Positions 47,898 to 63,078 of a DNA stretch of 64,000 nt are shown here, in pieces. Within the stretch, counting starts at the first letter, position 1; every line of letters starts with the position of its first letter. The translations under genes and the position numbers were made by a program. The notes under the pieces are model-generated. The model did no database searches and was not told the DNA's origin. It saw only the letters and a program-made list of their open reading frames with translations. The DNA is taken from the NCBI RefSeq assembly GCF_003788635.1, contig NZ_AYKH01000003.1, positions 62,001-126,000 of the forward strand, in the 5' to 3' direction. Source of the DNA: Salinisphaera orenii subsp. orenii MK-B5. Its GTDB lineage: Bacteria; Pseudomonadota; Gammaproteobacteria; Nevskiales; Salinisphaeraceae.

Positions 47898-48331
47898 GGC
47901 TTGTTAACACGTCATGCGAAGACCGCGTTGGAGACCTAAGATCGTGTTCTGCAAGGCGCGACTCGCGGATCGTGGCGCGCCCCTGGTCGATTTTCATGGG
48001 AGGCCCAACCCTTCGGGACAAGCGCTGTCGTGCGGCAATCCAGCGTTGTCGCACACTGACTGCGCGGCGCGTACGACACGCCTCGTCTTGCCGCCCCTAA
48101 TCAATTTTCAGGAAGCGCTTGGCGTGGGCTCGCATGAAGTGCTATCAACCCGGCATGGAAATACGTTCATGCCGGGTTGATAAAGCGAGCATGCGCTAGC
48201 GTGCTCGCCGCGGCCATCGGCCGCGAAGTGCTTGAAAATAGAGAGCGGAGATGCGCCGGTCTCTATTTTCAAGCGCGTTGAGAACAACCGATGATTCAGC
48301 TGTCTTGGCGCCGGGTTAATAACAGGCCCTA
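47895..48331. repeat. Dispersed repeat, copy B, filling the gap between two convergent stop codons
   Basis: The left end TAGGGCTTGTTAACACG contains the MFS stop. The right end GTTAATAACAGGCCCTA contains, on the minus strand, the stop of the ABC exporter gene. The ends are inverted repeats of each other (TAGGGC(T/C)TGTTA). The first 240 bases align with copy A at 33169 (shared GACCGCGTTGGAGACC/GCCGCGTTGGAGACC, GCGGCAATCCAGCGTTGTCG and GGCTCGCATGAAGTG). Copy B then carries about 190 extra bases made of four hairpins before the terminal repeat resumes, as if another element had inserted near its right end. Confidence 0.75.
48143..48273. repeat. Four consecutive hairpins inside repeat copy B
   Basis: Four inverted repeats follow one another: a perfect 15-bp stem TATCAACCCGGCATG/CATGCCGGGTTGATA (48143-48182); GCGAGCA/TGCTCGC around the palindrome CGCTAGCG (48185-48208); CGCGGCC/GGCCGCG with a three-base loop (48209-48225); and a perfect 14-bp stem CTTGAAAATAGAGA/TCTCTATTTTCAAG (48231-48273). 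They resemble REP/BIME-type units. Lying between convergent genes, they could also end both transcripts. Confidence 0.7.
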
Positions 48332-50119
48332 GCTTGCCGTGGTCACGGCGCCGCGGCGCTGCTGGAGCCGCCACATGGCGGCGTAGGCGCCGTCGGCCGC
48401 GAGCAAGCCGGCGTGCGTGCCGCGCTCGATCACCCGGCCCTCATCGAGTACCAGGATCTCGTCGGCATCGACGACGGTGGACAGACGGTGCGCGATCACG
48501 AGCGTCGTGTGATCGGCGGCGAGCTCGGCCAGCGCCCCGGTGATCGCGCCCTCGGCATGGCTGTCGAGCGAGGCGGTGGCCTCGTCGAACACCAGGATCG
48601 CTGGGTTCTTGAGCATGGCGCGGGCGATGGCGATGCGCTGTTTCTCGCCGCCGGATAGCTTCAGGCCGCGTTCGCCGACCTGGGTGGCCAGGCCGTCGGG
48701 CAGCCGGCCGATCAGGTCGTCGAGATGCGCGAGGCTCGCGGCGCGGGCGACCGCGTCGGCGTCGGCCTCGGGGTCGCCGTAGGCGATGTTGTATTCGATG
48801 GTGTCGTTGAACAGCACCGTGTCCTGAGGGACCACGCCGATCGCGTCGCGCAGGCTGTCGAGCGTGAGTTCGCGTATGTCGATACCGTCGACCGTGATCC
48901 GGCCGGCGTCGACGTCGTAGAAACGGAACAGCAGCCGCGCCAGGGTCGATTTGCCGGCCCCCGAGGCGCCCACCACGGCGAGTTTCCGTCCCGGTTCGAT
49001 GGTCAGGTTGACGTCGTCGAGGATGCGGCGTGCGCCGTCGTAGCCGAAGGCGACGTGCTCGAAGGCCACGCGCGGGCGTGTCGCGGCCAGCGGCCGGGCG
49101 TCGGGCGCGTCATGAATCGCCGGGCGGGCGTCGAGGAGCCGGAACATGCGGGCGGTGTCGGCCAGCGATTTTTTCAGCTCGCGGTAGACGAAACCGAGGA
49201 AGTTCAGCGGTATGAACAGCTGGAGCATGTAGGCGTTGACCATGACCAGATCGCCGACCGTCATTGCTCCGGCCACCACCCGCTGTCCGGCCAGCAGCAT
49301 CATGGCGGTCACGGCGGTCGCGATGACGAGCGCCTGCGCGGTGTTGAGCACGCCCAGCGACTGGCGCGAGCGGGCCAGTGCATACTCCCAGGCCGCCAGT
49401 TCGCGATCGTAGTGGTCGGCCTCGTAGCGCTCGTTGCCGAAGTACTTGACCGTCTCGTGATTCAGCAGGCTGTCCACGGCGCGGGTGTTGGCCCGGGAAT
49501 TCAAGCGGTTGGATTCGCGCACGTGGCGGGTGCGCCACTCCGTCAGCGCCGCGGTCAGCGCAACGTAGAGCGCCACGCTCGCCAGCACGATCACGGCGAA
49601 CCAGTAGCTGTAGTAGAACAGCAGTATGCCGGCCACCATCGAGATCTCGAGCAGGGTGGGGATGATGTTGAACAGCATGAAGCGCAGCAGAAAGCTGATG
49701 CCGCCGAGACCGCGTTCGATGTCGCGGGACAGGCCGCCGGTGCGCCGCGACAGATGAAAATCCAGATCGAGCGCGTGCAGGTGCTCGAAGACCTGCAGCG
49801 CGATCCGGCGCATGGTGCGCTCGTTGACGCGGCCGAACACGAGATCGCGCAGCTGGCCGAACAGCACCGATGCCAGTCGCAGCCCGCCGTAGGCCAGCAG
49901 CAGACCTACGGGCAGAACCAGGGCGGTGCGGTTGTCGGCGTCCAGCCCGTCGACGATGTGCTTGAGCACGATCGGCAGCAGAACCGTCGCCCCCTTGGCC
50001 GCGATCAGCAGGGCGAGTGCGACCGCGACCCGGCGCCGGTGTGCCCAGAGGTGGGGCCAGAGGCCGTTCAGCCGCCGCCACTCGTCACGGGGGGACTCGC
50101 CGGCGTCCGGCGCGCTCAA
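48329..50119 (-). CDS. ABC exporter, Atm1/HMT-type (fused membrane and ATPase domains)
   Basis: About 596 residues from TTG 50119. The frame stays open to ATG 50278, but that would overlap the lipocalin gene by 113 bases with serine-rich, non-conserved sequence, so the true start is uncertain. The six-helix transmembrane domain includes LDLDFHLSRRTGGLSRDIER and VDSLLNHETVKYFGNERYEA, which is diagnostic for the Atm1/ABCB6-7 class. The ATPase has Walker A VVGASGAGKSTLARLLF, signature LSGGEKQRIAIARAML and Walker B ILVFDEATASLDS. Relatives export glutathione-linked sulfur or metal compounds. The stop lies within repeat copy B. Confidence 0.88.
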   Translation of the reverse strand: MSAPDAGESPRDEWRRLNGLWPHLWAHRRRVAVALALLIAAKGATVLLPIVLKHIVDGLDADNRTALVLPVGLLLAYGGLRLASVLFGQLRDLVFGRVNERTMRRIALQVFEHLHALDLDFHLSRRTGGLSRDIERGLGGISFLLRFMLFNIIPTLLEISMVAGILLFYYSYWFAVIVLASVALYVALTAALTEWRTRHVRESNRLNSRANTRAVDSLLNHETVKYFGNERYEADHYDRELAAWEYALARSRQSLGVLNTAQALVIATAVTAMMLLAGQRVVAGAMTVGDLVMVNAYMLQLFIPLNFLGFVYRELKKSLADTARMFRLLDARPAIHDAPDARPLAATRPRVAFEHVAFGYDGARRILDDVNLTIEPGRKLAVVGASGAGKSTLARLLFRFYDVDAGRITVDGIDIRELTLDSLRDAIGVVPQDTVLFNDTIEYNIAYGDPEADADAVARAASLAHLDDLIGRLPDGLATQVGERGLKLSGGEKQRIAIARAMLKNPAILVFDEATASLDSHAEGAITGALAELAADHTTLVIAHRLSTVVDADEILVLDEGRVIERGTHAGLLAADGAYAAMWRLQQRRGAVTTAS

Positions 50120-50165
50120 GAGCGTGCGGGCATCGACGCTTGGATGTCGGCGCGATGCCGCACGG

Positions 50166-50717
50166 CTAGCCGTCGCTGCGCTCGTCCAGCGGCTGCTGCG
50201 GCACGCTGCGCAGCTTGCCGACGTCGTAACCCAGTTCGCCGACGCGCTTGACGAGGTCGTTGTAGGTCTCGCGGTCAATCTGCGGTTTCCGCGCCATGAT
50301 CCAGACGTAGTCGCGCTTCTCCCGGGCGACGATGGTGGTGTCGTAGTCCGGGCCGACGTAGGAAATGACGTACTGCATCTTCAGCGGCCAGAAGAACTGC
50401 ATGCCCCAGACTGCGTTGCCCGAGCCCTCGGTGACGTAGCCGGTCGGCTCCATGGTCTGCATCTCGCCGTCGAAGCTGCCCTCGCGGTAGGTGAAGACCG
50501 TATCGATGCGTCCCGGCTCGGTCTGCTCGTAGCGCTCGATCGAGTTGTAGGCGTTCTCGGTGGGCCCCGGCGGAATATGGGCGATCACGTACCACTTGCC
50601 CATGAACCGGTCCAGATCGACATCGTGCTCACGCGGGAACTCGCTGCTCGGCATGAGGCTGCAGGCCGCGAGCGTCAGTGGCATGGCGAGCGTTACAAGC
50701 CATCGGAAATAGCGCAT
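50166..50717 (-). CDS. blc: Outer-membrane lipocalin Blc
   Basis: This 183-residue lipoprotein has a signal peptide ending in the lipobox LTLAAC, so Cys19 is expected to be lipidated. The lipocalin signature DRFMGKWYVIAHIP is followed by ERYEQTEPGRIDTVFTYREG and ends with YVWIMARKPQI. Blc-type lipocalins bind lysophospholipids or fatty acids at the outer membrane and are often stress-induced. It lies 46 bases upstream of the ABC exporter start on the same strand. Confidence 0.94.
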   Translation of the reverse strand: MRYFRWLVTLAMPLTLAACSLMPSSEFPREHDVDLDRFMGKWYVIAHIPPGPTENAYNSIERYEQTEPGRIDTVFTYREGSFDGEMQTMEPTGYVTEGSGNAVWGMQFFWPLKMQYVISYVGPDYDTTIVAREKRDYVWIMARKPQIDRETYNDLVKRVGELGYDVGKLRSVPQQPLDERSDG

Positions 50718-50780
50718 GGAGTCCCCGTGATCGTTCGTGATGATGAATGCCTACGCGTCGCCGCGCCCCGATGGATTCGA

Positions 50781-53243
50781 TCAGGCGTCGGCGGCGCCGG
50801 GTGCAGCCGGGCGCGATGTCGCGGCGGTGCCCGGCGCGCACAGTTCGTCGGCGATCTCGGCGAACGCCATCGGCCGCGCGACGTGATAGCCCTGAACATA
50901 GTCCACGCCGATGCGTTCGAGTGCCTGCAGCAGCGCGCGCGACTCCACGTGCTCGGCGACCGTCTTCAGGCCCATCGCCTGGCCGACCTGGTTGATCGCC
51001 TCGACGATCGAACGCTCGATCGGATCGTCCAGAATGTGGCGCACGAGCTTGCCGTCGATCTTGATGAAATCCGACGGCAGATTCTTGAGATAGGAAAACG
51101 AACTCAGTCCGCTGCCGAAATCGTCGAGCGAGAACCGGCATCCGATCGCGCGCAGTGAATGGATCAGCTCGCCGGCCCGGCGGGTATTGGTCACCGCCGC
51201 GGTCTCGGTGATCTCGAACACGAGCCGGCGCGGGTCCACGCCCGAGCGCTCGATGCAATCGCGGGCGAAGTCGACGAACTGTTCGTCGGTGATCGACTGG
51301 CCGGAGATGTTGATGCTGTAGTGATCGATTCGGGCCTGCCGTCGCTCGGCGCCGGCGATCAGCGCAAGCGCGTTCTCGAGGACCCAGCGGTCGATGCGCG
51401 AGGCGACGTTGTAGCGCTCCGCGGTGATGAGTACGTTCTGCGGGTCCAGGCCGTCCTCCGCATCGGGAATGCGCAGCAGCAGTTCGATGCCGGGGCGATC
51501 GGTCTCGGTCTTCGACAGGGGCTGAATGCGCTGGGCGAACAGCGAGAAACGTTCGTGTTCGAGCGCTTCGCTGATCTGCTGCATGCGCTGCATCTCGCCG
51601 TGCCAGGTCAGCGTTTCGTCGCTGTCGCCGTGGTAGACGTGGATCTGGTTGCGGCCGCGTTCCTTGGCGAGATAGCAGGCGGTGTCCGCCCGCCGCATCA
51701 GCTCGCTGGCGCTGAGCGCCTGATGGTCGATCGCGGTGACGCCGATGCTCACGCCCAGACGGAAGAGCTTGTCCTCCCAGCGAAAGCGGAAGGTGTCGAT
51801 CTCGGCGCGCAGCGTCTCGGCCTTGGCGGCCGCGTCCTCGAGGGAGAGATTGCGCATGATCACGCCGAACTCGTCGCCGCCCAGGCGTGCGATCGTGTCC
51901 TCGCCGCGCAGCCGGGCGGCGATCTGGGTCGAGATCTGGCGCAGCATCTCGTCGCCCGCGTGGTGGCCGCAGGTGTCGTTGACCAGCTTGAACTGGTCCA
52001 GGTCGAGATAGCACAGCGCGTGTCGCTGCACGCTGTTGCGCGTATCCCGCAGGAAACGGTCGAGCATATGCTCGAAGGCGCGCCGGTTCGGCAGCCCGGT
52101 GAGCAGGTCGTGATTGGCCTGGTAGGTCATCTCCCGCGAGATCTGCTGCAGACGGGTGATGTCGTGGAGCACGATCACGGTGCCGACGATGGCCTGGGCA
52201 TCGTCGCGTATGGGCGAGATCGTGACCTTGAGCGCGTATTCCTCACGGCTCGGCCCGCGCATGGCCAGCGTGAGGTGGTTGTCCCATTCGCGGGCTTCGC
52301 CGTCGGCGATGCACTCCTCGACCAGCCCGGTGACGATCTCTTCGCGTTCGTCGTTGCGCAGCCGGCACACGCTGTCGAAATGGCGGGCGATCGCCTGATC
52401 CGCCTGCAGGCCGAGCATGCGTTCGGCGCGGGGATTGACGTAATCGATCGCGCCGCGGGCGTCGGTGGTGATCACGCCGTCGCCGATCGAGGCGAGGGTG
52501 ACCTGGGCGCGCTCCTTCTCGGCATTGAGTTCGCGCTGGGTCTCGATCAGCCGGGTGCCGTCACGACAGACCCCCTCGCTGCCGATGGGCCGGCCTTCGG
52601 CATCGTCGATCCGGCGCGAGGAGATCAGAAGCCAGGCCAGCGAGCCGTCCCGGCGACGGATGCGGGTGGGATGACGCACCAGATAAGGACTGCGGACCAG
52701 CGCATCGAAATCCGTCGCCGGGTCCGCGAGCAGATCGCGCAGCGGCAGCCCCTCGAGTTCCGCGGGGCTGTAGCCGAGCATGTCGGTAACGGTATCCGTG
52801 ATCCAGGTGATCCGGCCGTCGGCATCGATGTGATAGAGCACGTCGGTGACGTTGCGCAGCAGACGCTGGACGCGCTGATGGCGCACCAGCAACTTGTCGC
52901 GATAGCGGTGAACCCGGGCGACGAGCGATTCCGCGGCCGCCACCAGCTCGCTGTCCTGCGAGTCGACGCGGAACGCCGGTTCCGGCCGCTGTTCCCCGGA
53001 AATGTCGATGTTCTCGAGCCAGCGGGTCACGGCGTTCGATGCCGGGCTGGTGCCGCGGCGGTGGGCGAGCCAGACCGCAGCCACGGTGCCGAGCGCCATG
53101 CAGGTCAGGCCGACATTGAGCACCACCAGCAGCGCCAGCGTGCCGGTGGGGATATCCTCCAGACGCCAGAGAAAGGCCCACTGGGCCACCACGGTCACGC
53201 CCAGTGCCGCGCAGAGCAGTCGGATGAGGCCCGACATGCGCAT
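50781..53243 (-). CDS. Membrane PAS-PAS-GGDEF-EAL protein (c-di-GMP turnover)
   Basis: 820 residues from ATG 53243 (ATG 53237 also possible). Two membrane helices occupy residues 5-26 and 34-60. Two PAS domains follow at about 125-230 and 245-365. The GGDEF motif is at 455-459, with an inhibitory I-site RGED five residues before it, so the cyclase is likely active and product-inhibited. The EAL domain starts near 565 and has ELLLR in place of EALLR (catalytic Glu587 kept). FEITETA and DDFGSG (707-712) are also present, so phosphodiesterase activity is plausible. It is transcribed divergently from the quorum-sensing kinase, with 241 bases between the two starts. Confidence 0.93.
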   Translation of the reverse strand: MRMSGLIRLLCAALGVTVVAQWAFLWRLEDIPTGTLALLVVLNVGLTCMALGTVAAVWLAHRRGTSPASNAVTRWLENIDISGEQRPEPAFRVDSQDSELVAAAESLVARVHRYRDKLLVRHQRVQRLLRNVTDVLYHIDADGRITWITDTVTDMLGYSPAELEGLPLRDLLADPATDFDALVRSPYLVRHPTRIRRRDGSLAWLLISSRRIDDAEGRPIGSEGVCRDGTRLIETQRELNAEKERAQVTLASIGDGVITTDARGAIDYVNPRAERMLGLQADQAIARHFDSVCRLRNDEREEIVTGLVEECIADGEAREWDNHLTLAMRGPSREEYALKVTISPIRDDAQAIVGTVIVLHDITRLQQISREMTYQANHDLLTGLPNRRAFEHMLDRFLRDTRNSVQRHALCYLDLDQFKLVNDTCGHHAGDEMLRQISTQIAARLRGEDTIARLGGDEFGVIMRNLSLEDAAAKAETLRAEIDTFRFRWEDKLFRLGVSIGVTAIDHQALSASELMRRADTACYLAKERGRNQIHVYHGDSDETLTWHGEMQRMQQISEALEHERFSLFAQRIQPLSKTETDRPGIELLLRIPDAEDGLDPQNVLITAERYNVASRIDRWVLENALALIAGAERRQARIDHYSINISGQSITDEQFVDFARDCIERSGVDPRRLVFEITETAAVTNTRRAGELIHSLRAIGCRFSLDDFGSGLSSFSYLKNLPSDFIKIDGKLVRHILDDPIERSIVEAINQVGQAMGLKTVAEHVESRALLQALERIGVDYVQGYHVARPMAFAEIADELCAPGTAATSRPAAPGAADA

Positions 53244-53484
53244 CAGCCCCGCCGCGACTCGCGGTGCCGTCGGTCGGCGTGGGCGCTGGATCGCAAGACG
53301 CGTGGTCTCGGCATGGGGTCGCTCGCAAGAAGGTCGTGCGTAATATACCGCGTTTGCGAAGGAGTCGATTTCCGACGCGCTCTCGCGCGGCCCGGCGGGA
53401 CACCCCGTTCGGTAATTTTCATCATCGCATATACGATAGCCGACTGTGACCGCGCGGATCGGCACGACACCAGGACGAGCCCGC

Positions 53485-54855
53485 ATGCAGCACGGCGAGA
53501 TCTTGACCGGCCTGAGACGGCGCCTGCCCGTGCTCCTGCGGCGTCTGCGCCTGCGCCTGGCGGCCTCGATCCGGCTGAGCGCGGACTATTCGCGCGCCAA
53601 TATGGTCACCTTCGGCGTGGTCGCGGTGATCGGGCATCCGCTCTACTATTACTTCTGGACCGATGTGTATCCGCAGCAGTATGAGAATCTGTGGCTGCGG
53701 ATTCTCAGCGTGATCGTGTCGCTGCCGATGCTGTTCGAGCGGCAGCTGGCGCGCAGCGAGTTCTGGCGCGACAAGCTCACGCTCTACTGGCTGTTCATTC
53801 TGCTGTACATGCTGCCGTTCTTCTTCATGTTCATGGCGTTGATGAACGACTTCTCGCCCATCTGGTCGCTGTCGACGATGGCCGCCTGCATGCTGCTGGT
53901 CATTCTTGTGTTCGACTGGCTGATGACGCTGATACTGGCTTTCGTCGGTGGCGGTCTGGCCTGGGGCGTTTTCATGCTCGTCGACGGCGAGCTGGGTCCG
54001 GACGGGCTGCCGCTGGAGGTGCTGCTGCCCACCTACCTGTTCGGGCTCATCGCCGGGAGCACGTTCAACTACAAGACCGAGCTCGTTGCTCGCGAGAAGC
54101 TTGCCGCGATAACCGATGCGGTCGGGACGATGGCGCACGAGCTGCGTACGCCGCTGCTCGGCATCCGCAGCGGTGCGCGCGGACTGCAGAATTATCTGCC
54201 GGCGGTGTTCGAGGGCTTCGAGCTCGCCCGCGATCACGGCCTGCCGGTCCAGCCGGTGCGCAAGGCGCACTATCGCCAGATGCAGTCGGTGCTCGAACGC
54301 ATCAACGCCGAGACCGAATACACCAGCGTGATTCTCGACATGCTGCTGGTGAACTCCAGTCGCACCACGATCGATCACTCCACGTTTCAGCGCGAGTCCA
54401 TGAATGCCTGCGTCGAGGCGGCGCTCGAACGCTATCCCTTTCATGCCGAGCGCGAGCGCGCCATTGTCGAATGGCTGCCGGGCGACGACTTCGTCTTTCG
54501 TGGCTCCTCGCTGCTGATGATCCACGTGCTGTTCAACCTGATGAAGAACTCGCTCTATTATCTGGCCCAGGTCGACGACGGCCGAATCCGGATCTGGACC
54601 GAGCACCAGCGTTCGGGCGCTCATCGCCTGCATTTTCGCGACACCGGTCCCGGTATCCATCCGGACGACCTGCCGCGCATCTTCGAGCGCTTCTATTCCG
54701 GACTGCCGCGCGGGCAGGGCACCGGCATCGGACTCGCCTTCGCCGATCTGGTGATGCGCAGCTTCGCCGGCGAGATACGCTGTCATTCCGTGTTCGGGCA
54801 GTACACTGAGTTCGTGATGAGTTTTCCGCCGATCGAAGATGATGACAGCAACTGA
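53485..54855 (+). CDS. lqsS: LqsS/CqsS-type sensor histidine kinase for alpha-hydroxyketone autoinducer
   Basis: 456 residues from ATG 53485. Six closely spaced membrane helices fill residues about 40-195, with almost no periplasmic loops: the CqsS/LqsS sensor topology. The H-box AHELRTPLLGIRSG places the phosphorylated His at 218. The ATPase domain has LFNLMKNSLYYL (N box), DTGPGI (G1) and GTGIGLAFADLV (G2). Unlike Vibrio CqsS it has no fused receiver, matching Legionella LqsS; a separate regulator overlaps its end by 17 bases. The ligand should be the product of the synthase encoded 1.3 kb downstream. Assignment rests on topology plus the two partners, which is strong together. Confidence 0.87.
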   Translation: MQHGEILTGLRRRLPVLLRRLRLRLAASIRLSADYSRANMVTFGVVAVIGHPLYYYFWTDVYPQQYENLWLRILSVIVSLPMLFERQLARSEFWRDKLTLYWLFILLYMLPFFFMFMALMNDFSPIWSLSTMAACMLLVILVFDWLMTLILAFVGGGLAWGVFMLVDGELGPDGLPLEVLLPTYLFGLIAGSTFNYKTELVAREKLAAITDAVGTMAHELRTPLLGIRSGARGLQNYLPAVFEGFELARDHGLPVQPVRKAHYRQMQSVLERINAETEYTSVILDMLLVNSSRTTIDHSTFQRESMNACVEAALERYPFHAERERAIVEWLPGDDFVFRGSSLLMIHVLFNLMKNSLYYLAQVDDGRIRIWTEHQRSGAHRLHFRDTGPGIHPDDLPRIFERFYSGLPRGQGTGIGLAFADLVMRSFAGEIRCHSVFGQYTEFVMSFPPIEDDDSN

Positions 54856-55870
54856 ACTGGTTCCGTATTTCCATCCGACGCAGATCGTGCTCGTCGACGA
54901 CGATATCGATTTCCTCGGCAATCTGACCCTGCAGCTCGAGGCCGATCTGGCGTATCTGCTGTTCGACTCCACGGCGAAGGCGTTGACCTACATCAACGAC
55001 GGCCAGCCGCAGGACGGCTCCCGCCAGCGGTTTTTCCGGATCGTGGGCTCCGAGCCGCGCTCGATATCGGTCGCGGAAGCCGATGCGCCCGCGCGTGTGA
55101 CGCTGGACACCGACGCCATTCGTCGCGAAATGCTGTTCACCAACCGGTTCTCGCGCATATCGGTGGTCATGGTCGACTACGCCATGCCACAGATGAACGG
55201 GCTGGAGTTTTGCGAACGCATCGACAATCCGTACATCAAGAAGATTCTGTTCACCGGCGTGGCCACCGAAGCCGATGCGGTGGACGCCTTCAACCGCGGG
55301 GTGATCGATCGCTACATCCGCAAGAGCGAACATCAGGTCTACGAGCATCTCAATCGGACGATTCGCGAACTGCAGCACGCTCATATCCGCGATACGTTCG
55401 CGGCCGCCGGGGAGGTTTTTGAGGTCGACAGCCCGGCCTTTCTGGAAGATCCTGCGGTCGCCTCGCTGATGGCCACGCTCGCCGCCGGGCACGGGTTTGT
55501 GGAGCACTATCTGTGCGCCGATCCGCCGGGCTTCATACTGCTCGACGGAGACGGCCGCATGCGCCGTCTCGTGCTGTATGACGGCGCCGAACGCACGCGG
55601 CAGATGAATGCGGCGCGGCGGGCGGGAGCGCCCGCAGCCTGCCTGGAGGCCCTCGCCGAGGGCCGGGTCGTGTTCGATCCCGCCGCCGGTGACGACCGCT
55701 TCGAGCGCTGGGCCCGCGATACCTGCGCCGCCGAGCGTCTGGAGGGGCGCGAGCTCTACGCCTGGTCGCTGTTCCACCACGTGCCGGAACTGGATGCGTC
55801 GGGTGGCCCGACCGCGACGTACAACCGTTATCTGGAGTGGCTGGACACGGTCGGTTACGCCCTCATGTAG
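54839..55870 (+). CDS. lqsR: LqsR-like response regulator without DNA-binding domain
   Basis: 343 residues. The receiver domain keeps all catalytic positions: acidic DDD at 20-22, phospho-acceptor Asp113 in VVMVDYAMPQMNG, Thr139 in FTG and Lys162 in RKSE. Between the acidic pocket and Asp113 there is an insertion of roughly 50 residues (about 52-105), so the receiver is longer than usual. The C-terminal half (about 185-343) has no recognisable helix-turn-helix. This layout, length and its place between kinase and synthase match Legionella LqsR, whose output domain is also non-canonical. ATG 54839 or 54842 are possible starts. Output is probably through protein or nucleotide binding; this is inferred. 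Confidence 0.82.
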   Translation: MMTATELVPYFHPTQIVLVDDDIDFLGNLTLQLEADLAYLLFDSTAKALTYINDGQPQDGSRQRFFRIVGSEPRSISVAEADAPARVTLDTDAIRREMLFTNRFSRISVVMVDYAMPQMNGLEFCERIDNPYIKKILFTGVATEADAVDAFNRGVIDRYIRKSEHQVYEHLNRTIRELQHAHIRDTFAAAGEVFEVDSPAFLEDPAVASLMATLAAGHGFVEHYLCADPPGFILLDGDGRMRRLVLYDGAERTRQMNAARRAGAPAACLEALAEGRVVFDPAAGDDRFERWARDTCAAERLEGRELYAWSLFHHVPELDASGGPTATYNRYLEWLDTVGYALM

Positions 55871-56185
55871 CCCGGCTGGCAGCGGAAATCGAAGCCAACG
55901 TCGGCAAGCTCCGCTGAGCGCGCGGCATTCCCTCTCTTACTGCCTAGGCGCGGCCGCTTGCGCTTGATCGAAAAATCTTCCGTGACTCGATCGGATAGTC
56001 ACGCTCGCCCCTCGTGATGCGCGCACAAAAATGACAAAAGAATCGCCTTTATAGAAAAGAGCGAAATATATAATTAATATAATAAAAAACCGAATTTGTG
56101 TATAATAAATAATATTAGAGTTGACGCACTCTGTCAACTCTTTTGCGCGTCATATTTATCAACTTTTCATTCCAAGGGGTGCCCC
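55871..56185 (+). promoter_or_regulatory. AT-rich control region upstream of the autoinducer synthase
   Basis: From about 56030 to 56180 the sequence is extremely AT-rich, unlike the rest of the window. A perfect TATAAT lies at 56101-56106, without a good -35 at the right distance. A hairpin AGAGTTGAC/GTCAACTCT (56117-56141, loop of 7) followed by TTTT would sit at the very 5' end of the mRNA, as operator, stabiliser or weak attenuator. The ribosome binding site AAGGGG is directly followed by TGCCCC, which could pair with it. The 5' half (55871-56030) holds nothing I recognise. Confidence 0.55.
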
Positions 56186-57451
56186 ATGAAGACCGAAACC
56201 AACGTGATCAACCGCGAGTCGTTGCTGCCCAGGGCGGTTGCCGAGCCGGCCTTTCTCCGCGAGCACGTGGATCACTATTTCCGTGAGCGCGTCGAGAAGA
56301 CCTGGAACGGTGGCCACATCATGCACGGGCGCGAACCCGGCAATGACGCCATCATGATGGTCAGCAACGATTACCTCGACATGGCCAACCATCCGGACGT
56401 CATGCAGGCGCAGATCGACAGTCTGCGCGGCACCGACAACACGATGGTGATGTCGGCGGTCTATCTGCACGGGGACAGCCCGCAGCTGCATTTCGAGCGG
56501 CGCATGGCACACTGGATGCGCATGGAATCGAGCCTGCTCTGTCAGTCGGGCTATGCCGCGAACGTCGGGCTGATCCAGTCGATCGGTGCCCCCGGCACGC
56601 CCGTGTACATCGACATGTTCGCGCATGCCTCGCTCTGGGAGGGCATTCGCAGCGCCGGGCTCGAGGCCCGCACATTCCGACACAACGATCCGGGTCATCT
56701 GGAGTCGATGATCCGGCGCCACGGTCCCGGTATTGTCATTGTCGACACGGTCTACAGCACCAACGGCAGCGTCACGCCGCTGACCGATGTCGTCGATGTG
56801 GCCAGTGCAGGCGACTGCGTGATCATCGTCGACGAGTCGCATTCGCTGGGTACGCACGGCGATCAGGGTCGTGGCATGGTCGCCGGCATGGGCCTGCAGG
56901 GTCGTGTGCACTTCGTGACCGCCAGTCTGGCCAAGGCGTTCGCGGGCCGGGCCGGCCTGATCGCTTGCAGCGAGCGGCTGCGCGAGTTCATCAAATACAA
57001 CGCGCTGCCGGCGATTTTCAGTTCCTCGCTGCTGCCGCACGAAATCGCGGGTCTGTCGAAGACTCTGGACCTGGTGCGTCTGGCCGACGACAAGCGGGCC
57101 CGTCTGCATGCGAACGCCGACTACCTGCGGCGTCACCTCGACGCCCTCGGGTACAACGTCGACATCAGCCAGGCGCAGATCATCGCGCTCGAGGCCGGGC
57201 CCGAGCAGCAGACCATCGTGCTGCGCGATGCGCTGGAGTCGCGGGGGGTGTTCGGCTCGGTGTTCTGTGCGCCGGCGACGGCGACCAAGCGTTCCCTGAT
57301 CCGGCTGTCGCTGAATTCGAATCTGACGATCGCACAGCTCAATCGCGTGATCGACGTCTGCGCCGAGATTCGTGACGAGGTCGACCTGGCCAACTGGCCC
57401 TCGAGCCGTCGCAAGCGGCGCGAGCAGACGGTGGCGCGGGCCGCGGCCTGA
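56186..57451 (+). CDS. lqsA: Alpha-hydroxyketone autoinducer synthase (LqsA/CqsA family)
   Basis: This 421-residue PLP-dependent enzyme of the alpha-oxoamine synthase class joins an acyl-CoA with an amino acid or SAM-derived precursor to make CAI-1/LAI-1-type signals. The PLP lysine is Lys250 in TASLAKAFAGRAG; the cofactor-binding Asp/His lie in IIVDESHSLGTHGDQGRG (Asp216, His219). It has the CqsA-specific N-terminus with NDYLDMANHPDVMQAQI and SAVYLHGDSPQLHFERRMA, which separates it from KBL, BioF and HemA. The preceding kinase and regulator genes complete an Lqs/Cqs locus. Acyl chain length of the product cannot be told. Confidence 0.92.
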   Translation: MKTETNVINRESLLPRAVAEPAFLREHVDHYFRERVEKTWNGGHIMHGREPGNDAIMMVSNDYLDMANHPDVMQAQIDSLRGTDNTMVMSAVYLHGDSPQLHFERRMAHWMRMESSLLCQSGYAANVGLIQSIGAPGTPVYIDMFAHASLWEGIRSAGLEARTFRHNDPGHLESMIRRHGPGIVIVDTVYSTNGSVTPLTDVVDVASAGDCVIIVDESHSLGTHGDQGRGMVAGMGLQGRVHFVTASLAKAFAGRAGLIACSERLREFIKYNALPAIFSSSLLPHEIAGLSKTLDLVRLADDKRARLHANADYLRRHLDALGYNVDISQAQIIALEAGPEQQTIVLRDALESRGVFGSVFCAPATATKRSLIRLSLNSNLTIAQLNRVIDVCAEIRDEVDLANWPSSRRKRREQTVARAAA

Positions 57452-57463
57452 TCCGCGGTAAAC

Positions 57464-57494
57464 GGCGGCCGCGTCCCCGGCGGGCGCGGCCGCC
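57464..57494 (+). terminator. Strong GC hairpin after the synthase gene
   Basis: GGCGGCCGCG (57464-57473) and CGCGGCCGCC (57485-57494) form a perfect 10-bp stem with an 11-base loop, 12 bases after the stop. No T tract follows, so termination is plausible but not certain. Confidence 0.4.
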
Positions 57495-57556
57495 TCCGGC
57501 GTCGCGATGGAATCACCGTGGTGGTGTGTTGTCATGGAAGAGTCATCGTTACCAAG

Positions 57557-57775
57557 ATGGGAGCCCCCGTGGCCGACCTCGAACGCATTGCCCGCGAGAA
57601 CGACACCAGCCTCGAGATCGTTCGCGCGATCGCAGATCACATCGGCGACGATGCGGATCGTATTCGCGAGACGCTCGACAACCCGGACGACTTCGACTCG
57701 ATCGTGACCCGGGCCCTCGAATTGACCGGCGATACCTCGGCTACGCTGCGATGGCAGGGCCGCGCGATCGGCTGA
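57557..57775 (+). CDS. Small acidic helical protein downstream of lqsA, unknown
   Basis: 72 residues from ATG 57557; an earlier start at 57518 gives 85. It is acidic and almost wholly helical (ADLERIARENDTSLEIVRAI then GDDADRIRETLDNPDDFDSI). No Cys, no signal and no family I recognise. It starts 105 bases after lqsA on the same strand, with the GC hairpin in between, so it may be co-regulated with the quorum-sensing locus or independent. The composition and regular helical pattern support a real protein. Confidence 0.5.
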   Translation: MGAPVADLERIARENDTSLEIVRAIADHIGDDADRIRETLDNPDDFDSIVTRALELTGDTSATLRWQGRAIG

Positions 57776-57877
57776 GCGGCGAGAACCGACCGGGCCGCGA
57801 GTACGCGGCGGCGGGGGGCATCGCGCCTCCGAAACGTCGAATTCAAAGACAGTGACGGGTCGGCCCCGTTGCGCGCC

Positions 57878-59356
57878 TCAGTCGTCCGTCGATGTGCCGT
57901 CCCAGATGCCCGGTTCGACCTGATCCGGATTCTTGAGCACCTTGCGATTGAATACCGGCTCGGCGATGCCCTGGCGGCGCTGGCGCTCGTAGTCCGCCAG
58001 TACCCGCAGCGCGATCGGTGTCAGGCAGAGGATCGCGATCAGGTTGGTCGTGGCCATCAGGCCCATGGCCAGGTCGGCGAAGTCCCAGACGAAGCCGAGC
58101 GTGGCCACCGAGCCGATCATCACCATGGCAAGTACCGCGGGCCGCAGGACGGCGACTGCCTTCTTGGCGTGCTTGCCGGCCAGGTATTCGAGATTGATCT
58201 CGCTGTAGGCGAAGTTGGCCAGGATGGAGGTGTAGGCAAAGAACAGGATTGCGATGGCGATGAAGCCCACGCCGAAGGCGCCCAGGTGATCGGCCATGGC
58301 GTCCTGGGTCAGCTGGATGCCCTGCATGGACTGGTCGCCGCCGTTGCCCGCGAGCATCTGGTCGTAGACGCCCGAAAGCAGAATCACGACGGCCGTGCAG
58401 CTGCAGATGATGAGCGTGTCGATGACCACGCCGAATGCCTGCACGAGCCCCTGGGCGGCGGGGTGATTGACGTCGGCGGTGGCGGCGGCGTTCGGGGTCG
58501 AGCCCATGCCGGCCTCGTTCGAGAACAGGCCGCGCTTGACGCCGTTCTCCATGGCGATCTTGATGGTGTAGCCGACGGCCCCGCCCACGGCCGGTCCGAA
58601 GCCGAACGCGCTCTGCACGATCAGCCACAGCATGCCCGGGACCTCGCTGTAGTTGGCGATGAGCACATAGACCGCGACCAGGAAGTAGCCGATCGCCATC
58701 AGGGGTACGATCTTCTCGGCCACGCGTGCGATCGAACGCAGCCCGCCGTAGACCACGATGCCGGCGAGCACCACCAGCGCGATGCCGGTCGCCCAGGTCG
58801 GCACGTCGAAGGCGCCTTCCATGCCCTTGGCGATGGTGTTGGCCTGGGCGCCGGAGAAGGCGAAGCCGTAGGCGATGATCAGAAAGATCGCGAACAGGAT
58901 GCTCATCCAGCGCTGGCCGAGCGCGCGTTCGATGTAATACGCCGGCCCGCCGCGATAGACGCCGTCCGCGTAGTGGATCTTGTAGACTTGGCCCAGCGTG
59001 CATTCGATGAAGGTGGTGGCCAGCCCCACCAGCGCGGTCATCCACATCCAGAACACCGCCCCCGGGCCGCCCACCCAGAGCGCGAGCGCGACCCCGGCGA
59101 GATTGCCCGTGCCGACGCGCGCGGCCAGCGACGTCGACAGGGCCTGGAAGGAGCTGACGCCCTTTTCGCTGCTGCGCATGTCGAAGGTGATGCGCGCCAT
59201 GTGCGCGAACAGGCGAAACTGCATGAACCGCGTGAGCACCGTAAAGGCGATGCCCGCGCCGAACAGCAGATAGAACAGGATGTACGACCAGATGAAGTCG
59301 CTGACCGGCGTCATCACGGCGTAGATCGCCTGTTGCAGAGTATCGAGCCAACCCAT
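57878..59356 (-). CDS. Sodium:alanine (amino acid) symporter, AgcS/AlsT family
   Basis: This 492-residue inner-membrane protein has about eleven helices. AgcS landmarks are LAARVGTGNLAGVALALWVG near the N-terminus, with the conserved Thr/Gly/Asn of the substrate and sodium site, GGPGAVFWMWMTALVG, and FSNEAGMGSTPNAAATADV. It imports alanine or glycine with Na+, in keeping with a sodium-rich habitat. It faces the small gene downstream of lqsA. The neighbours give no further hint of substrate. Confidence 0.93.
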   Translation of the reverse strand: MGWLDTLQQAIYAVMTPVSDFIWSYILFYLLFGAGIAFTVLTRFMQFRLFAHMARITFDMRSSEKGVSSFQALSTSLAARVGTGNLAGVALALWVGGPGAVFWMWMTALVGLATTFIECTLGQVYKIHYADGVYRGGPAYYIERALGQRWMSILFAIFLIIAYGFAFSGAQANTIAKGMEGAFDVPTWATGIALVVLAGIVVYGGLRSIARVAEKIVPLMAIGYFLVAVYVLIANYSEVPGMLWLIVQSAFGFGPAVGGAVGYTIKIAMENGVKRGLFSNEAGMGSTPNAAATADVNHPAAQGLVQAFGVVIDTLIICSCTAVVILLSGVYDQMLAGNGGDQSMQGIQLTQDAMADHLGAFGVGFIAIAILFFAYTSILANFAYSEINLEYLAGKHAKKAVAVLRPAVLAMVMIGSVATLGFVWDFADLAMGLMATTNLIAILCLTPIALRVLADYERQRRQGIAEPVFNRKVLKNPDQVEPGIWDGTSTDD

Positions 59357-59846
59357 GCGGTTTCCCCTTGGCAGCCGGTGCGGCGCGAATCGTCACTCGG
59401 CCGCTGCATGTTGCATGCCATCGAGCATGGGCGCAGATCGTGTGGTCGCGCAAGTCGCGGATGATGGCATGCCGGCGCGGCAGGGCGGCGTCCACACCCG
59501 AAGCCGCCGCGATCGGCGTGTCCGGGCTGTCGGGATGGCATCACGTCTGCTTCGATGACCGCAGCGATGGCATACTCGACCCGTACCGCCGGATCGTCGC
59601 GCTTGCGCGCGATCACGCGACGATCACGCGGTGATCGATGTGGCCGACGAATGACCGAGGACGAGGCCGCATTGCACCGTCCGGAGTCGAATGCGGCTGG
59701 GGCGCATTGCCCGAATTGTCCGACGCGCTCGCAAGCGGCGAGCGGCGGCCGGACGTGTTCTACCGGCCGCCTCATACCGGCGCGACAATGAACCACGGCC
59801 CGCCGGTCGATGCGCGGCGGGCCGTGAACGAGTGACGGTCGCGCTG
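59357..59846. other. Gene-free stretch upstream of the alanine symporter
   Basis: It contains the promoter region of the symporter gene and the 3' side of the solute-binding gene. I see no gene, clear promoter or repeat. Confidence 0.4.
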
Positions 59847-60896
59847 TCAGTTGACCGGGCCGCCCTCGCTGTCGAGGCTGCATTCCGCCAGCGACGGGTC
59901 GCTAGAGCAGCGGATTTTTTTCAGCAGATGCTGCATCCGGTGGTTGTACCAGTTCTGGTCCCACAGCTCCTGCCGGGTCTCGCGAAACATCTCCCGGTAG
60001 TTCTTGTCGCGCTCACCGGATATACGCACCCAGTACTTGTCGGGTATCTCGGCGTCGGCGTTCTTCACCCGCCGCATCGTGGATTCGTACATGTTGTTGA
60101 ACACCCACTCGCGAGATTTCTGGCCGAAATCGTCGGGAAACCGATCCTGATGCACGATCAGCTGGCCGGAGAGCATGCCGAGGACGAAATCGGCGATGCC
60201 GCCGTTCTCTCCGAGTCCCTTGTAGAGCTCCAGCGCGTTGTAGGCGAACGAGGGCGCATAGGCCAGATCCACGCTGCCGTTGTTGAACATCGGTCCGAAG
60301 GAGGCGATGGACGCACCCACCGGCGAGGCGCCGGCCACGTTGGCCAGCGTCGAGGCCTGCTTGTCGTAGGACATCACCGCGATCTTCTTGCCCGCCAGCG
60401 CATCGAGGCTGTCGAGATAGCGTTTGTCTCTGGAGAACAGGAAGGCCTTGCCGAGCGGCACCACGCCGACGACTTCGTAACCGTCCTGCTTCATGTATTC
60501 GGCGGCCTTGGGGCTGGACATGACCTCGATGGCGGTCTTTTCCTGTTCGTAGGTCTGCAGGCCGCCCGCCATGTCGAGGGAGCCGGCGAACTTCACGAAC
60601 TGGATCGTGCGGATGCCGGTCACCGCGGCCATGTCGCATTCACCGGCCTTGAAGTCCTTCGCGGCCACCGCCTCGTCGGTATAGGCCCGGGTGTCGAGCT
60701 TGATGCCCCAGCTGCGTGCCTGGACCACGTAGTCCTGGAAGGACTCGTAGATGAAGCCGTTGGCGCCGATCGGATCGTAGATGCACAGAGTGCGCGACTC
60801 GACCTGTGCCGCGGCCGGCTGGAGTGCGCTGCCCAGCAGGGCGAGCGCCCCGAGCGTCAGCGTGCCGAGGGTCGATGTCAGTCGTGTCTTGGCCAT
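59847..60896 (-). CDS. Putative TRAP-associated solute-binding protein (DUF6091-like)
   Basis: This 349-residue exported protein has a signal peptide cleaved after AQA (about residue 31). The mature part begins ESRTLCIYDPIGANGFIYES and has a DctP-like alpha/beta pattern: AGECDMAAVTGIRTIQFVKF, KKIAVMSYDKQASTLANVAG and NNGSVDLAYAPSFAYNALEL. It contains four Cys, including a pair near the C-terminus (CSSDPSLAEC), which may form a disulfide. It lies 52 bases downstream of a fused TRAP permease on the same strand and is presumably its binding protein. The ligand is unknown. Confidence 0.78.
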   Translation of the reverse strand: MAKTRLTSTLGTLTLGALALLGSALQPAAAQVESRTLCIYDPIGANGFIYESFQDYVVQARSWGIKLDTRAYTDEAVAAKDFKAGECDMAAVTGIRTIQFVKFAGSLDMAGGLQTYEQEKTAIEVMSSPKAAEYMKQDGYEVVGVVPLGKAFLFSRDKRYLDSLDALAGKKIAVMSYDKQASTLANVAGASPVGASIASFGPMFNNGSVDLAYAPSFAYNALELYKGLGENGGIADFVLGMLSGQLIVHQDRFPDDFGQKSREWVFNNMYESTMRRVKNADAEIPDKYWVRISGERDKNYREMFRETRQELWDQNWYNHRMQHLLKKIRCSSDPSLAECSLDSEGGPVN

Positions 60897-60948
60897 GGAT
60901 CTCCTCCTTGGTTTGTCTGTTCTGACGGGGTTGCGGGCCGGATGCCGG

Positions 60949-63078
60949 CTAGAAGAGCTGCACGAAGATCAGCGGCGTGAAGGCCACGAGCAGCAGCGAT
61001 GTCGCCATGACCGCGATCGGCAGCAGCATCGCCTCATGCCGGCGCCAGAAGCTGGGATCGTCGGCCGCCTCGTCCTTCGCCCGCTGGATTTCCGCGTCGC
61101 CCACCACCTGCCGTGTGAGCAGCTGGTTGAGTGCGACCGGTGGGCTGAGATAGCCGAGTTCGAAGGCGACCAGCACGATCATCCAGAAATGCACCGGGTC
61201 GATGCCGTTGTCGTAGGCCACCGGTGCGAGCGTGGCACTGACCAGGATGATCGCGCCGTAGGGCTCCATGATCATGCCGATGACGACCAGCATCACCACC
61301 AGGACCGCAGTCGCCGCCCAGACGCTGCCGAGATCCTCCGGGAACAGCTCCATGACGCCCGAGCGTTCCATGACGCCGCCGAACACGATTGACAGCACCA
61401 TCAGCATGAGCAGTGCGCCGAGCAGCATCGAGGTGTCCGCGGTCGAGGCGCGCAGGGCGTTCCAGAAGCCCGCCGGCTCGTGCTCTGGGGCCTTCGCCTG
61501 CCCGCGGTCGGCCTTGTGGATGGCTTCGACGTGGAGGCGTGCGGCCCGCCAGCGGTCGTAGCCGAGCAGCGCAAGCAGCATCAGCGGCAGGATCACCGGG
61601 GCGGAGAATTCGTTGAAGCTCTGTCCCAGCAGGTGCGTGTAGAGCAGGACCACCACGGCCGCGATGACGACGTACGGGATCACCGGGCCGAGTGCCTGTC
61701 GCATCCGGGGCAGCGCGCTGTCCGGGGTCGCGATGTAGGGACGGCTCTTGCGGGTGAGATAGACGAAGGCCACGAAGGTCGCGGCCGTGAGCGCGAACAC
61801 GTACAGCCCCCAGCCGAACAGCTGATCGGTGGTGACCTGGCGATTGAGCGCGGCGATGATCACCACCATCAGGCAGGGATTGAGTACCACGCCCATGCTG
61901 CCCGACATCGCGGTCGAGGCCACCGCCAACTGCCGATAGGTGCCGGCGATGCGCATCTCCTGATACAGGACCGCGCCGATGGCGAGCACGAAGATCCCCG
62001 AGGCGCCGGTGTAGGCCGTGGGCCACGCCGAGGCCAGCACCACCAGGATGACGACGAACTCCGGACGCAGCTCCCAGGAGCGGAACAGGCCGAAGACCAC
62101 CTCGGCGATGCGGGTGTGCTTGAGCATCATGCCTACCCAGACATAGAGCCCGATGCCGGTGTAGAGATCGGCGAAACGGATCATCTTGGTCAGCTGGACC
62201 GCCGGTCCCGCGAGATACCGTTCCACGAAGAAGAAGTAAAGGATGCTCACCAGGGCGAGCCAGCAGTACAGGGGCACCGTGAGCAGGGCGCGCGGGATCG
62301 AGCCGCCCGAGGGTGCATGGTCCGGGACGCGCAGCGTGCGATACAGTGCGGCGGCGGCCAGTATCAGGAAGCCGACCAACCAGAGCATGTTGAGCGCCGC
62401 ATCGCCGCCATGATCGAGGCGCAGCCAGATGTAGCCGCTGAACGCCATCGCGAGGTTGGCGAAGATCTGCGCGGCCGAGGAGACGCGATAGTCCAGGGCC
62501 GATCGCGGGGCGCGCAGCCCGATCTGCTCGTTGAGCACGAGCGCGACGAAGCCGCCGAACATGATCAGCAGCACCAGGATATAAGCCTGGAAGTCCTGTC
62601 CGAGCTGATTGATCCGACCCATGCTCAGCTCGAGCGCGCGATACGCCCGCAGCGAGGCCGTCGCCGTCACCTCGTGGTTGTATTCGTAGCGTTCGTAGGC
62701 CGCCCGGCACTGCGCACGCTGTCCCTCCAGCGAACGCCGGCGTGCTGCGGGGTCGGCCGGCCCGGCGTCGAACAGGCTGTCGCTGTCGGCCTTTGATTCC
62801 GTCTGCTGGCGAAGCCGGGCATCGATGTCCATGTCCGGATCGCAGGACGGCTCCACCATGTCCGTGCGAAGCATGTTGTAGTTCGACCAGATGTCGCCGC
62901 CCAGGCTGAGCAGCTGGCCGTGGATGAATGCGCTGGTGCCGAACAGAATCGCTACCAGCAGCAATACCGCGACCGGCAGCGTCAGCAGCCAGTTGCGCGC
63001 GGCGCTGTATTGCTTGGGCGCATCCGTTGTGTGCGGGTCAGCGTGGTCGGCGCCCGCGGCGGATTCCGGGGCGGCCAT
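60949..63078 (-). CDS. TRAP transporter permease with fused small and large subunits
   Basis: 709 residues. The N-terminal part, about residues 30-270, has a membrane anchor (LLTLPVAVLLLVAILFG), a soluble segment and three or four further helices, in place of DctQ. The remainder is DctM-like, with LTKMIRFADLYTGIGLYVWV, SMGVVLNPCLMVVIIAALNR and MEPYGAIILVSATLAPVAYD. FELGYLSPPVALNQLL in the C-terminal half is a DctM signature. It starts one base inside the stop of the upstream lipoprotein gene (TAATG), so translation is coupled. The binding protein gene follows. Confidence 0.87.
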   Translation of the reverse strand: MAAPESAAGADHADPHTTDAPKQYSAARNWLLTLPVAVLLLVAILFGTSAFIHGQLLSLGGDIWSNYNMLRTDMVEPSCDPDMDIDARLRQQTESKADSDSLFDAGPADPAARRRSLEGQRAQCRAAYERYEYNHEVTATASLRAYRALELSMGRINQLGQDFQAYILVLLIMFGGFVALVLNEQIGLRAPRSALDYRVSSAAQIFANLAMAFSGYIWLRLDHGGDAALNMLWLVGFLILAAAALYRTLRVPDHAPSGGSIPRALLTVPLYCWLALVSILYFFFVERYLAGPAVQLTKMIRFADLYTGIGLYVWVGMMLKHTRIAEVVFGLFRSWELRPEFVVILVVLASAWPTAYTGASGIFVLAIGAVLYQEMRIAGTYRQLAVASTAMSGSMGVVLNPCLMVVIIAALNRQVTTDQLFGWGLYVFALTAATFVAFVYLTRKSRPYIATPDSALPRMRQALGPVIPYVVIAAVVVLLYTHLLGQSFNEFSAPVILPLMLLALLGYDRWRAARLHVEAIHKADRGQAKAPEHEPAGFWNALRASTADTSMLLGALLMLMVLSIVFGGVMERSGVMELFPEDLGSVWAATAVLVVMLVVIGMIMEPYGAIILVSATLAPVAYDNGIDPVHFWMIVLVAFELGYLSPPVALNQLLTRQVVGDAEIQRAKDEAADDPSFWRRHEAMLLPIAVMATSLLLVAFTPLIFVQLF

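What the first reader, a model, noticed from the sequence alone, without database searches (positions are those of the whole stretch)
53485..57775. Complete alpha-hydroxyketone (Lqs/Cqs-type) quorum-sensing locus
Kinase, stand-alone regulator and PLP synthase lie together in the order lqsS-lqsR-lqsA, different from the Legionella order and from Vibrio CqsS with its fused receiver. The catalytic residues of all three are intact. In a presumed halophile such a locus points to a CAI-1/LAI-1-like signal of unknown chain length and an unknown regulon.
Basis: partly seen in the sequence, partly recalled or inferred. Interest (0 to 1): 0.85.

Follow-up and report, generated by a model that had tools for sequence, protein, structure and literature searches.

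The report
Salinisphaera Lqs-type quorum-sensing module
A salt-loving bacterium carries a complete set of genes for making and sensing an alpha-hydroxyketone chemical signal, and in its genus this set is inherited as one block with an enzyme of the c-di-GMP biofilm messenger, which suggests that the two signals are wired together.

Summary
Window 53485-57451 encodes an Lqs-type sensor kinase, an LqsR-family regulator and an LqsA/CqsA synthase on one strand. The synthase scores 590 bits against the curated model (cut-off 428) and groups with LqsA/CqsA, away from BioF, KBL and serine palmitoyltransferase. The genus is Salinisphaera. Such systems are known. The linear order S-R-A is not new: 15 of 16 mapped non-Salinisphaera loci holding all three genes share it, mostly with A inverted.

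A divergent PAS-GGDEF-EAL gene (50781 to about 53246) belongs to it. GE-S-R-A stands together in 11 of 11 lqs+ Salinisphaera genomes although flanks differ, and all four are undetected in the other 3 of 14. Those 3 show no GGDEF or EAL match, against 20-50 and 11-25 in the others. They fall with lqs+ genomes on trees, so one joint loss is likely: a single event. The receptor's tail-length residue is Phe, predicting a short (about C8) ligand. Nothing was tested at the bench.

The parts
53485..54855 (+). lqsS: sensor histidine kinase, 456 aa from ATG (469 from GTG 53446); N-terminal membrane sensor domain, HisKA/HATPase, no receiver
   Evidence: HATPase_c 1.8e-18, HisKA 22.6 bits, below its 26.9 cut-off; sensor residues kept; kinase residues in 30 of 30 rows
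54839..55870 (+). lqsR: response regulator, 343 aa, receiver with D20/D21/D113/K162 plus an LqsR output domain
   Evidence: phmmer 6sy9 E 1.5e-43 over residues 11-337; predicted fold (pLDDT 82) matches 6sy9, TM 0.79/0.88, E 2.2e-29
56121..56137 (+). candidate operator or stem: dyad TTGAC-N7-GTCAA, about 65 bp upstream of the lqsA ATG
   Evidence: only match of this pattern in the window, 0.06 expected, 6 of 100 shuffles had one; TGAC-N3-8-GTCA dyad in 6 of 11 lqs+ genomes 59-69 bp from lqsA, 0.31 expected by simple shuffles; pattern chosen after looking
56186..57451 (+). lqsA: PLP-dependent alpha-hydroxyketone autoinducer synthase, 421 aa
   Evidence: NF005526 590 bits against cut-off 428; 3hqt 2.6e-109; tree
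57569..57775 (+). small acidic protein, 68 aa, start GTG; function unknown; whether it belongs to the module is open
   Evidence: 51-99% identical over its whole length in the 5 other genomes that have it (6 of 11 lqs+ genomes); helical model, pLDDT 91; no PDB fold at E <= 0.001
50781..53246 (-). GE: PAS-PAS-GGDEF-EAL c-di-GMP enzyme, divergent to lqsS; open frame reaches 53486, start near 53246 inferred from where relatives begin to match
   Evidence: Pfam PAS/GGDEF/EAL; GGDEF, DDFGSG and ELLLR kept in 12 of 12 full-length rows; beside S-R-A in 11 of 11 lqs+ genomes, undetected with them in 3 of 14
50166..50717 (-). left flank: lipocalin-like gene, not part of the module
   Evidence: Lipocalin_2 2.6e-37; contiguous with agcS where the module is elsewhere or absent
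57878..59356 (-). right flank: AgcS-type sodium:alanine symporter, not part of the module
   Evidence: Na_Ala_symp 1.6e-156

Best explanation
This is an Lqs-type alpha-hydroxyketone quorum-sensing system of Salinisphaera, intact by sequence. LqsA joins an acyl-CoA (probably medium chain) to a SAM-derived donor and makes a CAI-1/LAI-1-like signal (inferred from family). The signal builds up, binds the membrane domain of LqsS and shifts its kinase/phosphatase balance; LqsS exchanges phosphate with Asp113 of LqsR directly, since LqsS has no receiver of its own (the absence is shown, the route inferred). Phe at the tail-length position predicts a short tail, about C8 (inferred). The module includes the divergent PAS-GGDEF-EAL protein, shown as an evolutionary unit within the genus. 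The proposed output is a change in c-di-GMP, through LqsR and/or this enzyme, and so in attachment or motility (inferred).
For: Synthase: NF005526 590 against cut-off 428, 3hqt E 2.6e-109, tree; of the 9 acyl-pocket residues listed for V. cholerae CqsA 6 are identical, the others V32M, F79Y, F257Y (PMC3285556 passages). Regulator: 6sy9 by sequence and by fold. Sensor: W104/S107/F162 equivalents kept; the C170 equivalent is F in 9 of 11 lqs+ Salinisphaera (I in G001, C in G012); C170F limits V. cholerae CqsS to C8 ligands (PMC3285556 passages). One sensor-domain match and one R match at E <= 0.001 in the own genome. Unit with GE: together in 11 of 11, undetected together in 3 of 3; in G001, G009 and G010 ABC-Lip-AgcS is contiguous elsewhere and GE-S-R-A sits at another site. 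No GGDEF/EAL match in the 3 lqs-minus genomes. Literature: the LqsR output domain resembles the PleD diguanylate cyclase domain (PMC10653808 passages); Legionella LqsS feeds c-di-GMP through LvbR (PMC11237717 passages).
Against: No chemistry, expression or phenotype is available. LqsR of Legionella showed no cyclase activity in vitro (PMC10653808 passages). The joint loss is probably one event in one clade, so it is one data point and could be general lifestyle change; two of the three genomes are incomplete (87% and 81%). GE is not near lqs in any non-Salinisphaera stretch held. The chain-length residue varies even within the genus and is transferred from distant receptors. A six-helix sensor was not resolved by a simple hydropathy scan. 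HisKA is below its Pfam cut-off.
Confidence: 0.75

Rival explanations
1. The Lqs system is real, but GE is only a long-standing neighbour. It shares a divergent promoter region by history and has no functional tie to the signal.
For: Not near lqs outside Salinisphaera in the stretches held; the own genome has 20 GGDEF matches, so one near any locus is not rare.
Against: GE stays with S-R-A when the flanks change and is undetected where S-R-A is; the lqs-minus genomes also lack every other GGDEF/EAL match.
Confidence: 0.4
2. The synthase is a BioF/KBL/serine-palmitoyltransferase-like alpha-oxoamine synthase of ordinary metabolism that happens to lie beside a two-component system.
For: It belongs to the same superfamily and scores 234 bits on bioF.
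Against: Far below the bioF cut-off and far above the AHK synthase cut-off; the tree separates it at 100/100 from four bioF-like, three serine-palmitoyltransferase-like and one KBL enzyme; the own genome has a separate BioF-like enzyme (L053; 176 bits on the AHK model; 415 on bioF).
Confidence: 0.03
3. The pair LqsS/LqsR answers mainly to signals of other species (eavesdropping) or to another ligand, and the self-made signal is minor.
For: V. [quoted passage not shown] the sensor residue at position 170 varies in the genus.
Against: Synthase and receptor are linked in 11 of 11 genomes and undetected together in 3.
Confidence: 0.1

Closest known systems
Legionella Lqs system (LqsA-LqsR-HdeD-LqsS, plus LqsT)
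   Same: The same three protein families; R between A and S (PMC3376566 passages); separate regulator; LqsR similar over nearly its whole length
   Different: All three genes on one strand, nothing between R and S, one sensor-domain match only in the own genome, and a linked PAS-GGDEF-EAL gene
Nitrococcus and Paraburkholderia lqs loci
   Same: The same gene set and linear order; synthases 60-63% identical
   Different: There A converges with S-R; no GGDEF-EAL match within about 9 kb
Janthinobacterium Jqs (jqsA-jqsS-jqsR)
   Same: The same three families, by PMC3566124 passages
   Different: By its locus tags the order is A-S-R (PMC3566124 passages); its sequence was not compared here
Vibrio Cqs system (CqsA-CqsS)
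   Same: Synthase about 45% identical to Vibrio homologues; sensor residues kept
   Different: CqsS carries a fused receiver; here LqsR is a stand-alone regulator
Ralstonia PhcX (LqsR family tied to Phc)
   Same: LqsR-family regulator
   Different: There phcX left lqs and joined phc (PMC10653808 passages); here LqsR is still with its synthase and sensor

Membership tests
AHK autoinducer synthase (LqsA/CqsA) | score over the curated equivalog cut-off NF005526 | tested here: met
   590.4 against 428 bits
AHK autoinducer synthase (LqsA/CqsA) | groups with LqsA/CqsA and apart from BioF/KBL/SPT enzymes | tested here: met
   100/100 split from 8 of 9 outgroup rows (4 bioF-like, 3 SPT-like, 1 KBL); the ninth, L067 (302 bits on NF005526, its best model, long branch), falls on the LqsA side
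AHK autoinducer synthase (LqsA/CqsA) | makes an alpha-hydroxyketone or aminoketone | not testable with these tools
   needs LC-MS
LqsS/CqsS sensor kinase | six-helix membrane sensor with conserved ligand positions | tested here: inconclusive
   W, S, F kept; a simple hydropathy scan gave only three overlapping hydrophobic stretches
LqsS/CqsS sensor kinase | intact phospho-acceptor His and ATP-binding residues | tested here: met
   30 of 30 rows; HATPase_c over, HisKA under its Pfam cut-off
LqsR family | receiver plus LqsR-specific output domain over the full length | tested here: met
   6sy9 E 1.5e-43 by sequence, E 2.2e-29 by fold
LqsR family | output function | not testable with these tools
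   unsettled in the passages seen (PMC10653808)
Legionella-type Lqs arrangement | hdeD between lqsR and lqsS; LqsT paralogue | tested here: not met
   S and R overlap by 17 bp; one sensor-domain match only
Vibrio-type Cqs system | receiver fused to the sensor kinase | tested here: not met
   no receiver match in the kinase; V. campbellii CqsS has one at its end
Vibrio-type Cqs system | LuxU/LuxO phosphorelay | not tested

The most novel reading that the evidence does not exclude
An alpha-hydroxyketone quorum-sensing module with a dedicated, co-inherited c-di-GMP enzyme: LqsR (degenerate GGDEF-like output) and the PAS-GGDEF-EAL partner together turn cell density into a second-messenger change, so that when a lineage gave up c-di-GMP it also gave up the whole quorum-sensing block. 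This would explain the unknown output of the LqsR family.
Probability: 0.35. Interest if true: 0.7.

Novelty: new variant of a known kind. Interest (0 to 1): 0.5.

Why it matters
How LqsR acts is unsolved: its output domain resembles a diguanylate cyclase but showed no such activity (PMC10653808 passages). A genus in which lqs genes and a c-di-GMP enzyme form one inherited block, with natural lqs-minus relatives in which no c-di-GMP enzyme domain was detected, gives a direct way to test whether the family's output is c-di-GMP. It also offers a halophile as a model and a checkable prediction of signal chain length.

Tried and rejected
Rejected: BioF/KBL identity; an Rfam RNA in 48000-62000 (one match, E 0.5, 18.2 bits against gathering 39); HalOD1 identity of the small gene (one relative at 19.9 bits, cut-off 26.3; nothing for the window protein) and any PDB fold for it (best E 2.1). 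Lateral arrival in the window's own lineage is not favoured, because lqs+ is widespread in the genus and the lqs-minus genomes are nested; the lqs status of the two other family members in that tree (G395, G397) was not tested.

Faulty steps and repairs: one search used a wrong residue numbering for V. campbellii CqsS, redone. The rpoB tree held rows read in a wrong frame (at least the five it flagged or set apart) and was replaced. That tree holds 10 of 11 lqs+ and 2 of 3 lqs-minus genomes: rpoB of G006 and G007 came only in pieces. G007 was placed by ABC+lipocalin proteins, a tree without G001, G009, G010 and G006. Rows dropped: second copies of four genomes (L089, L090, L093, L097) from the kinase, regulator and synthase-tree sets, but not from the 43-row synthase alignment; kinase rows L026 and L028 (23-24% identity, partial) and L103 and L107 (my frame reading broke off). 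One search gave false short GE reads for L010, L088, L089, two of them at a contig end; for G009 (L088) searches show the domains in one open frame of 819 aa. The EAL regex matched 6 of 12 rows; by alignment ELLLR is in 12 of 12.
Full report
What is there. The window lies in a Salinisphaera genome: the nearest named relative of its synthase is Salinisphaera halophila YIM 95161 (98% identical), and the window is G000 contig C3 62001-126000. Three open frames on the + strand match the finding: a kinase (ATG 53485 or GTG 53446, to 54855), a regulator (54839-55870, overlapping the kinase by 17 bp) and a 421-residue PLP enzyme (56186-57451). Pfam gives HATPase_c and a HisKA match below its cut-off for the first, Response_reg for the second, Aminotran_1_2 for the third. 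NCBIfam calls the third an alpha-hydroxyketone-type autoinducer synthase (590.4 bits, cut-off 428), with bioF far under its own cut-off. The best solved relatives are V. cholerae CAI-1 synthase 3hqt (2.6e-109) and Legionella LqsR 6sy9 (1.5e-43, residues 11-337).

Residues. The kinase keeps its phospho-acceptor His and ATP-site residues in 30 of 30 aligned kinases, and the regulator D20, D113, T139 and K162 in 28 of 28. The synthase lysine 250 is kept in 43 of 43 rows, four being second copies (its role as PLP lysine is recalled). Of nine acyl-pocket residues listed in PMC3285556 (passages seen), six are identical and three differ (V32M, F79Y, F257Y). In the sensor, the equivalents of V. cholerae CqsS W104, S107 and F162 (named in PMC3376566, passages) are W, S and F. 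The equivalent of C170, which sets tail length, is Phe in the window and in 9 of 11 lqs+ Salinisphaera in all, Ile in G001 and Cys in G012. Since V. cholerae C170F and V. harveyi F175 favour C8 ligands (PMC3285556, passages), I predict a short-tailed signal. This is inference across distant receptors.

Tree. The window was placed with 38 other LqsA/CqsA-like rows and nine weaker-scoring enzymes. It falls with S. halophila inside an 11-row Salinisphaera clade (100/99), and 8 of the 9 weaker enzymes split off at 100/100. Their best NCBIfam models are bioF (4), serine palmitoyltransferase (3) and KBL (1); the ninth, L067, has the AHK synthase model as best match at 302 bits, below the cut-off, and falls on the LqsA side on a long branch.

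Gene order. Among the non-Salinisphaera loci mapped hold all three genes. The linear order is S-R-A in 15. In 14 of them A points towards S-R (L013, L014, L016-L024, L029, L098, L099), in one all three are co-directional (L100); L025 has A-S-R. In five of the 14 a fatty-acid hydroxylase gene lies between A and R (L013, L014, L016-L018, Pfam checked for two of them). Legionella has A-R-hdeD-S with S and R convergent (PMC3376566, passages); Janthinobacterium has A-S-R by locus tags (PMC3566124, passages). So Salinisphaera is unusual in orientation, not in order, and not alone in that.

A larger unit. In 14 Salinisphaera genomes the synthase passes the cut-off in 11. In all 11, S, R and A are co-directional and a PAS-GGDEF-EAL gene (GE) lies divergently next to S; in G006 GE is cut by the contig end. 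The flanks are not constant. In 6 of 11 (G000, G003, G004, G008, G011, G013) the block lies between a lipocalin gene and agcS; G006 has agcS on the right and ends inside GE on the left; in G012 the ABC-lipocalin side is kept and no agcS was found in the genome; in G001, G009 and G010 ABC-lipocalin-AgcS-TRAP is contiguous elsewhere and the block sits at another place. In the three remaining genomes (G002, G005, G007) ABC, lipocalin, AgcS and TRAP are also contiguous, and no A over the cut-off, no R, no S sensor domain and no GE was found. GE is not found in the other lqs stretches held. Thus within the genus GE-S-R-A behaves as one inherited unit.

c-di-GMP. The same three genomes show no GGDEF and no EAL match, against 20-50 and 11-25 in the 11 lqs+ genomes. 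Two of them are incomplete (87% and 81%), but G002 is 99% complete. On rpoB, G002 and G005 are sister to lqs+ G010 (100/100) inside a clade with lqs+ G001 and G009 (99/97); G007 groups with G002 on ABC+lipocalin proteins. Loss in one clade is the simplest reading. It is one event, so the link is suggestive, not proven. It fits two published points: the LqsR output domain resembles PleD's cyclase domain though without activity in vitro (PMC10653808, passages), and Legionella LqsS influences c-di-GMP through LvbR (PMC11237717, passages). My model of the window's LqsR (pLDDT 82) matches 6sy9 best (TM 0.79/0.88); I did not test the cyclase likeness of its output domain on its own. GE keeps GGDEF, DDFGSG and ELLLR in 12 of 12 full-length rows, three of them second copies.

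Other parts. Between R and A, a dyad TTGAC-N7-GTCAA lies about 65 bp before the lqsA start. It is the only such site in the window (0.06 expected; 6 of 100 shuffles had one), and a TGAC-N3-8-GTCA dyad at 59-69 bp is found in 6 of 11 lqs+ genomes (0.31 expected by simple shuffles; G000 and G003 are near-copies). The pattern was chosen after looking. Downstream of A lies a 68-aa gene from GTG 57569, found in 6 of 11 lqs+ genomes, with a confident helical model but no known fold.

Literature. The search for Salinisphaera with quorum sensing listed 7 papers, none about an Lqs system by title or start of abstract; Salinisphaera with alpha-hydroxyketone gave none. PMC10653808 does not name Salinisphaera in its main text; its supplementary tables, which may list it, could not be read. 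From PMC3566124 I saw passages: the jqsA deletion is complemented by cqsA and lqsA. That lqs clusters occur in several environmental bacteria is known (PMC3376566: abstract and passages). Searches for cqs or lqs with c-di-GMP (12 of 33 papers listed, 9 of 9) showed no linked enzyme gene by title or start of abstract; apart from passages of two of them they were not read.

Verdict. The core locus is a new member of a known system; the co-inherited c-di-GMP enzyme and the joint absence make it a new variant that can be tested.

Noticed in passing
L013:10260-11081, L014:10216-11061, also L016, L017, L018, L030: In six MAG contigs a fatty-acid hydroxylase gene (PF04116 for the two checked) follows lqsA on the same strand (in L030 only the last bases of lqsA are held) and lies before convergent lqsR; it could tailor the signal.
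   Followed up: partly
window 57569-57775 (+): A 68-aa acidic protein downstream of lqsA, found in 6 of 11 lqs+ Salinisphaera genomes; confident helical model, no PDB match; function unknown.
   Followed up: partly
window 56121-56137: Dyad upstream of lqsA whose spacer changes between species while the arms are kept; candidate operator or stem.
   Followed up: partly
G002, G005, G007 (L128-L130): Three Salinisphaera genomes with no GGDEF or EAL match, against 20-50 GGDEF in relatives: apparently wholesale loss of c-di-GMP enzymes.
   Followed up: partly
L088 about 4315-5511 and L097 about 10410-11633: Where the block sits elsewhere (G009, G001) a second GGDEF/EAL-type gene lies about 1.1 kb downstream of lqsA.
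   Followed up: no
G054: L098 and L104: One gammaproteobacterium has two LqsA-like synthases, one over the cut-off (566 bits) and one below (371 bits).
   Followed up: no
L067 (G334): A divergent LqsA-like enzyme (302 bits, below cut-off, but its best NCBIfam model) on a long branch, possibly a separate synthase type.
   Followed up: no
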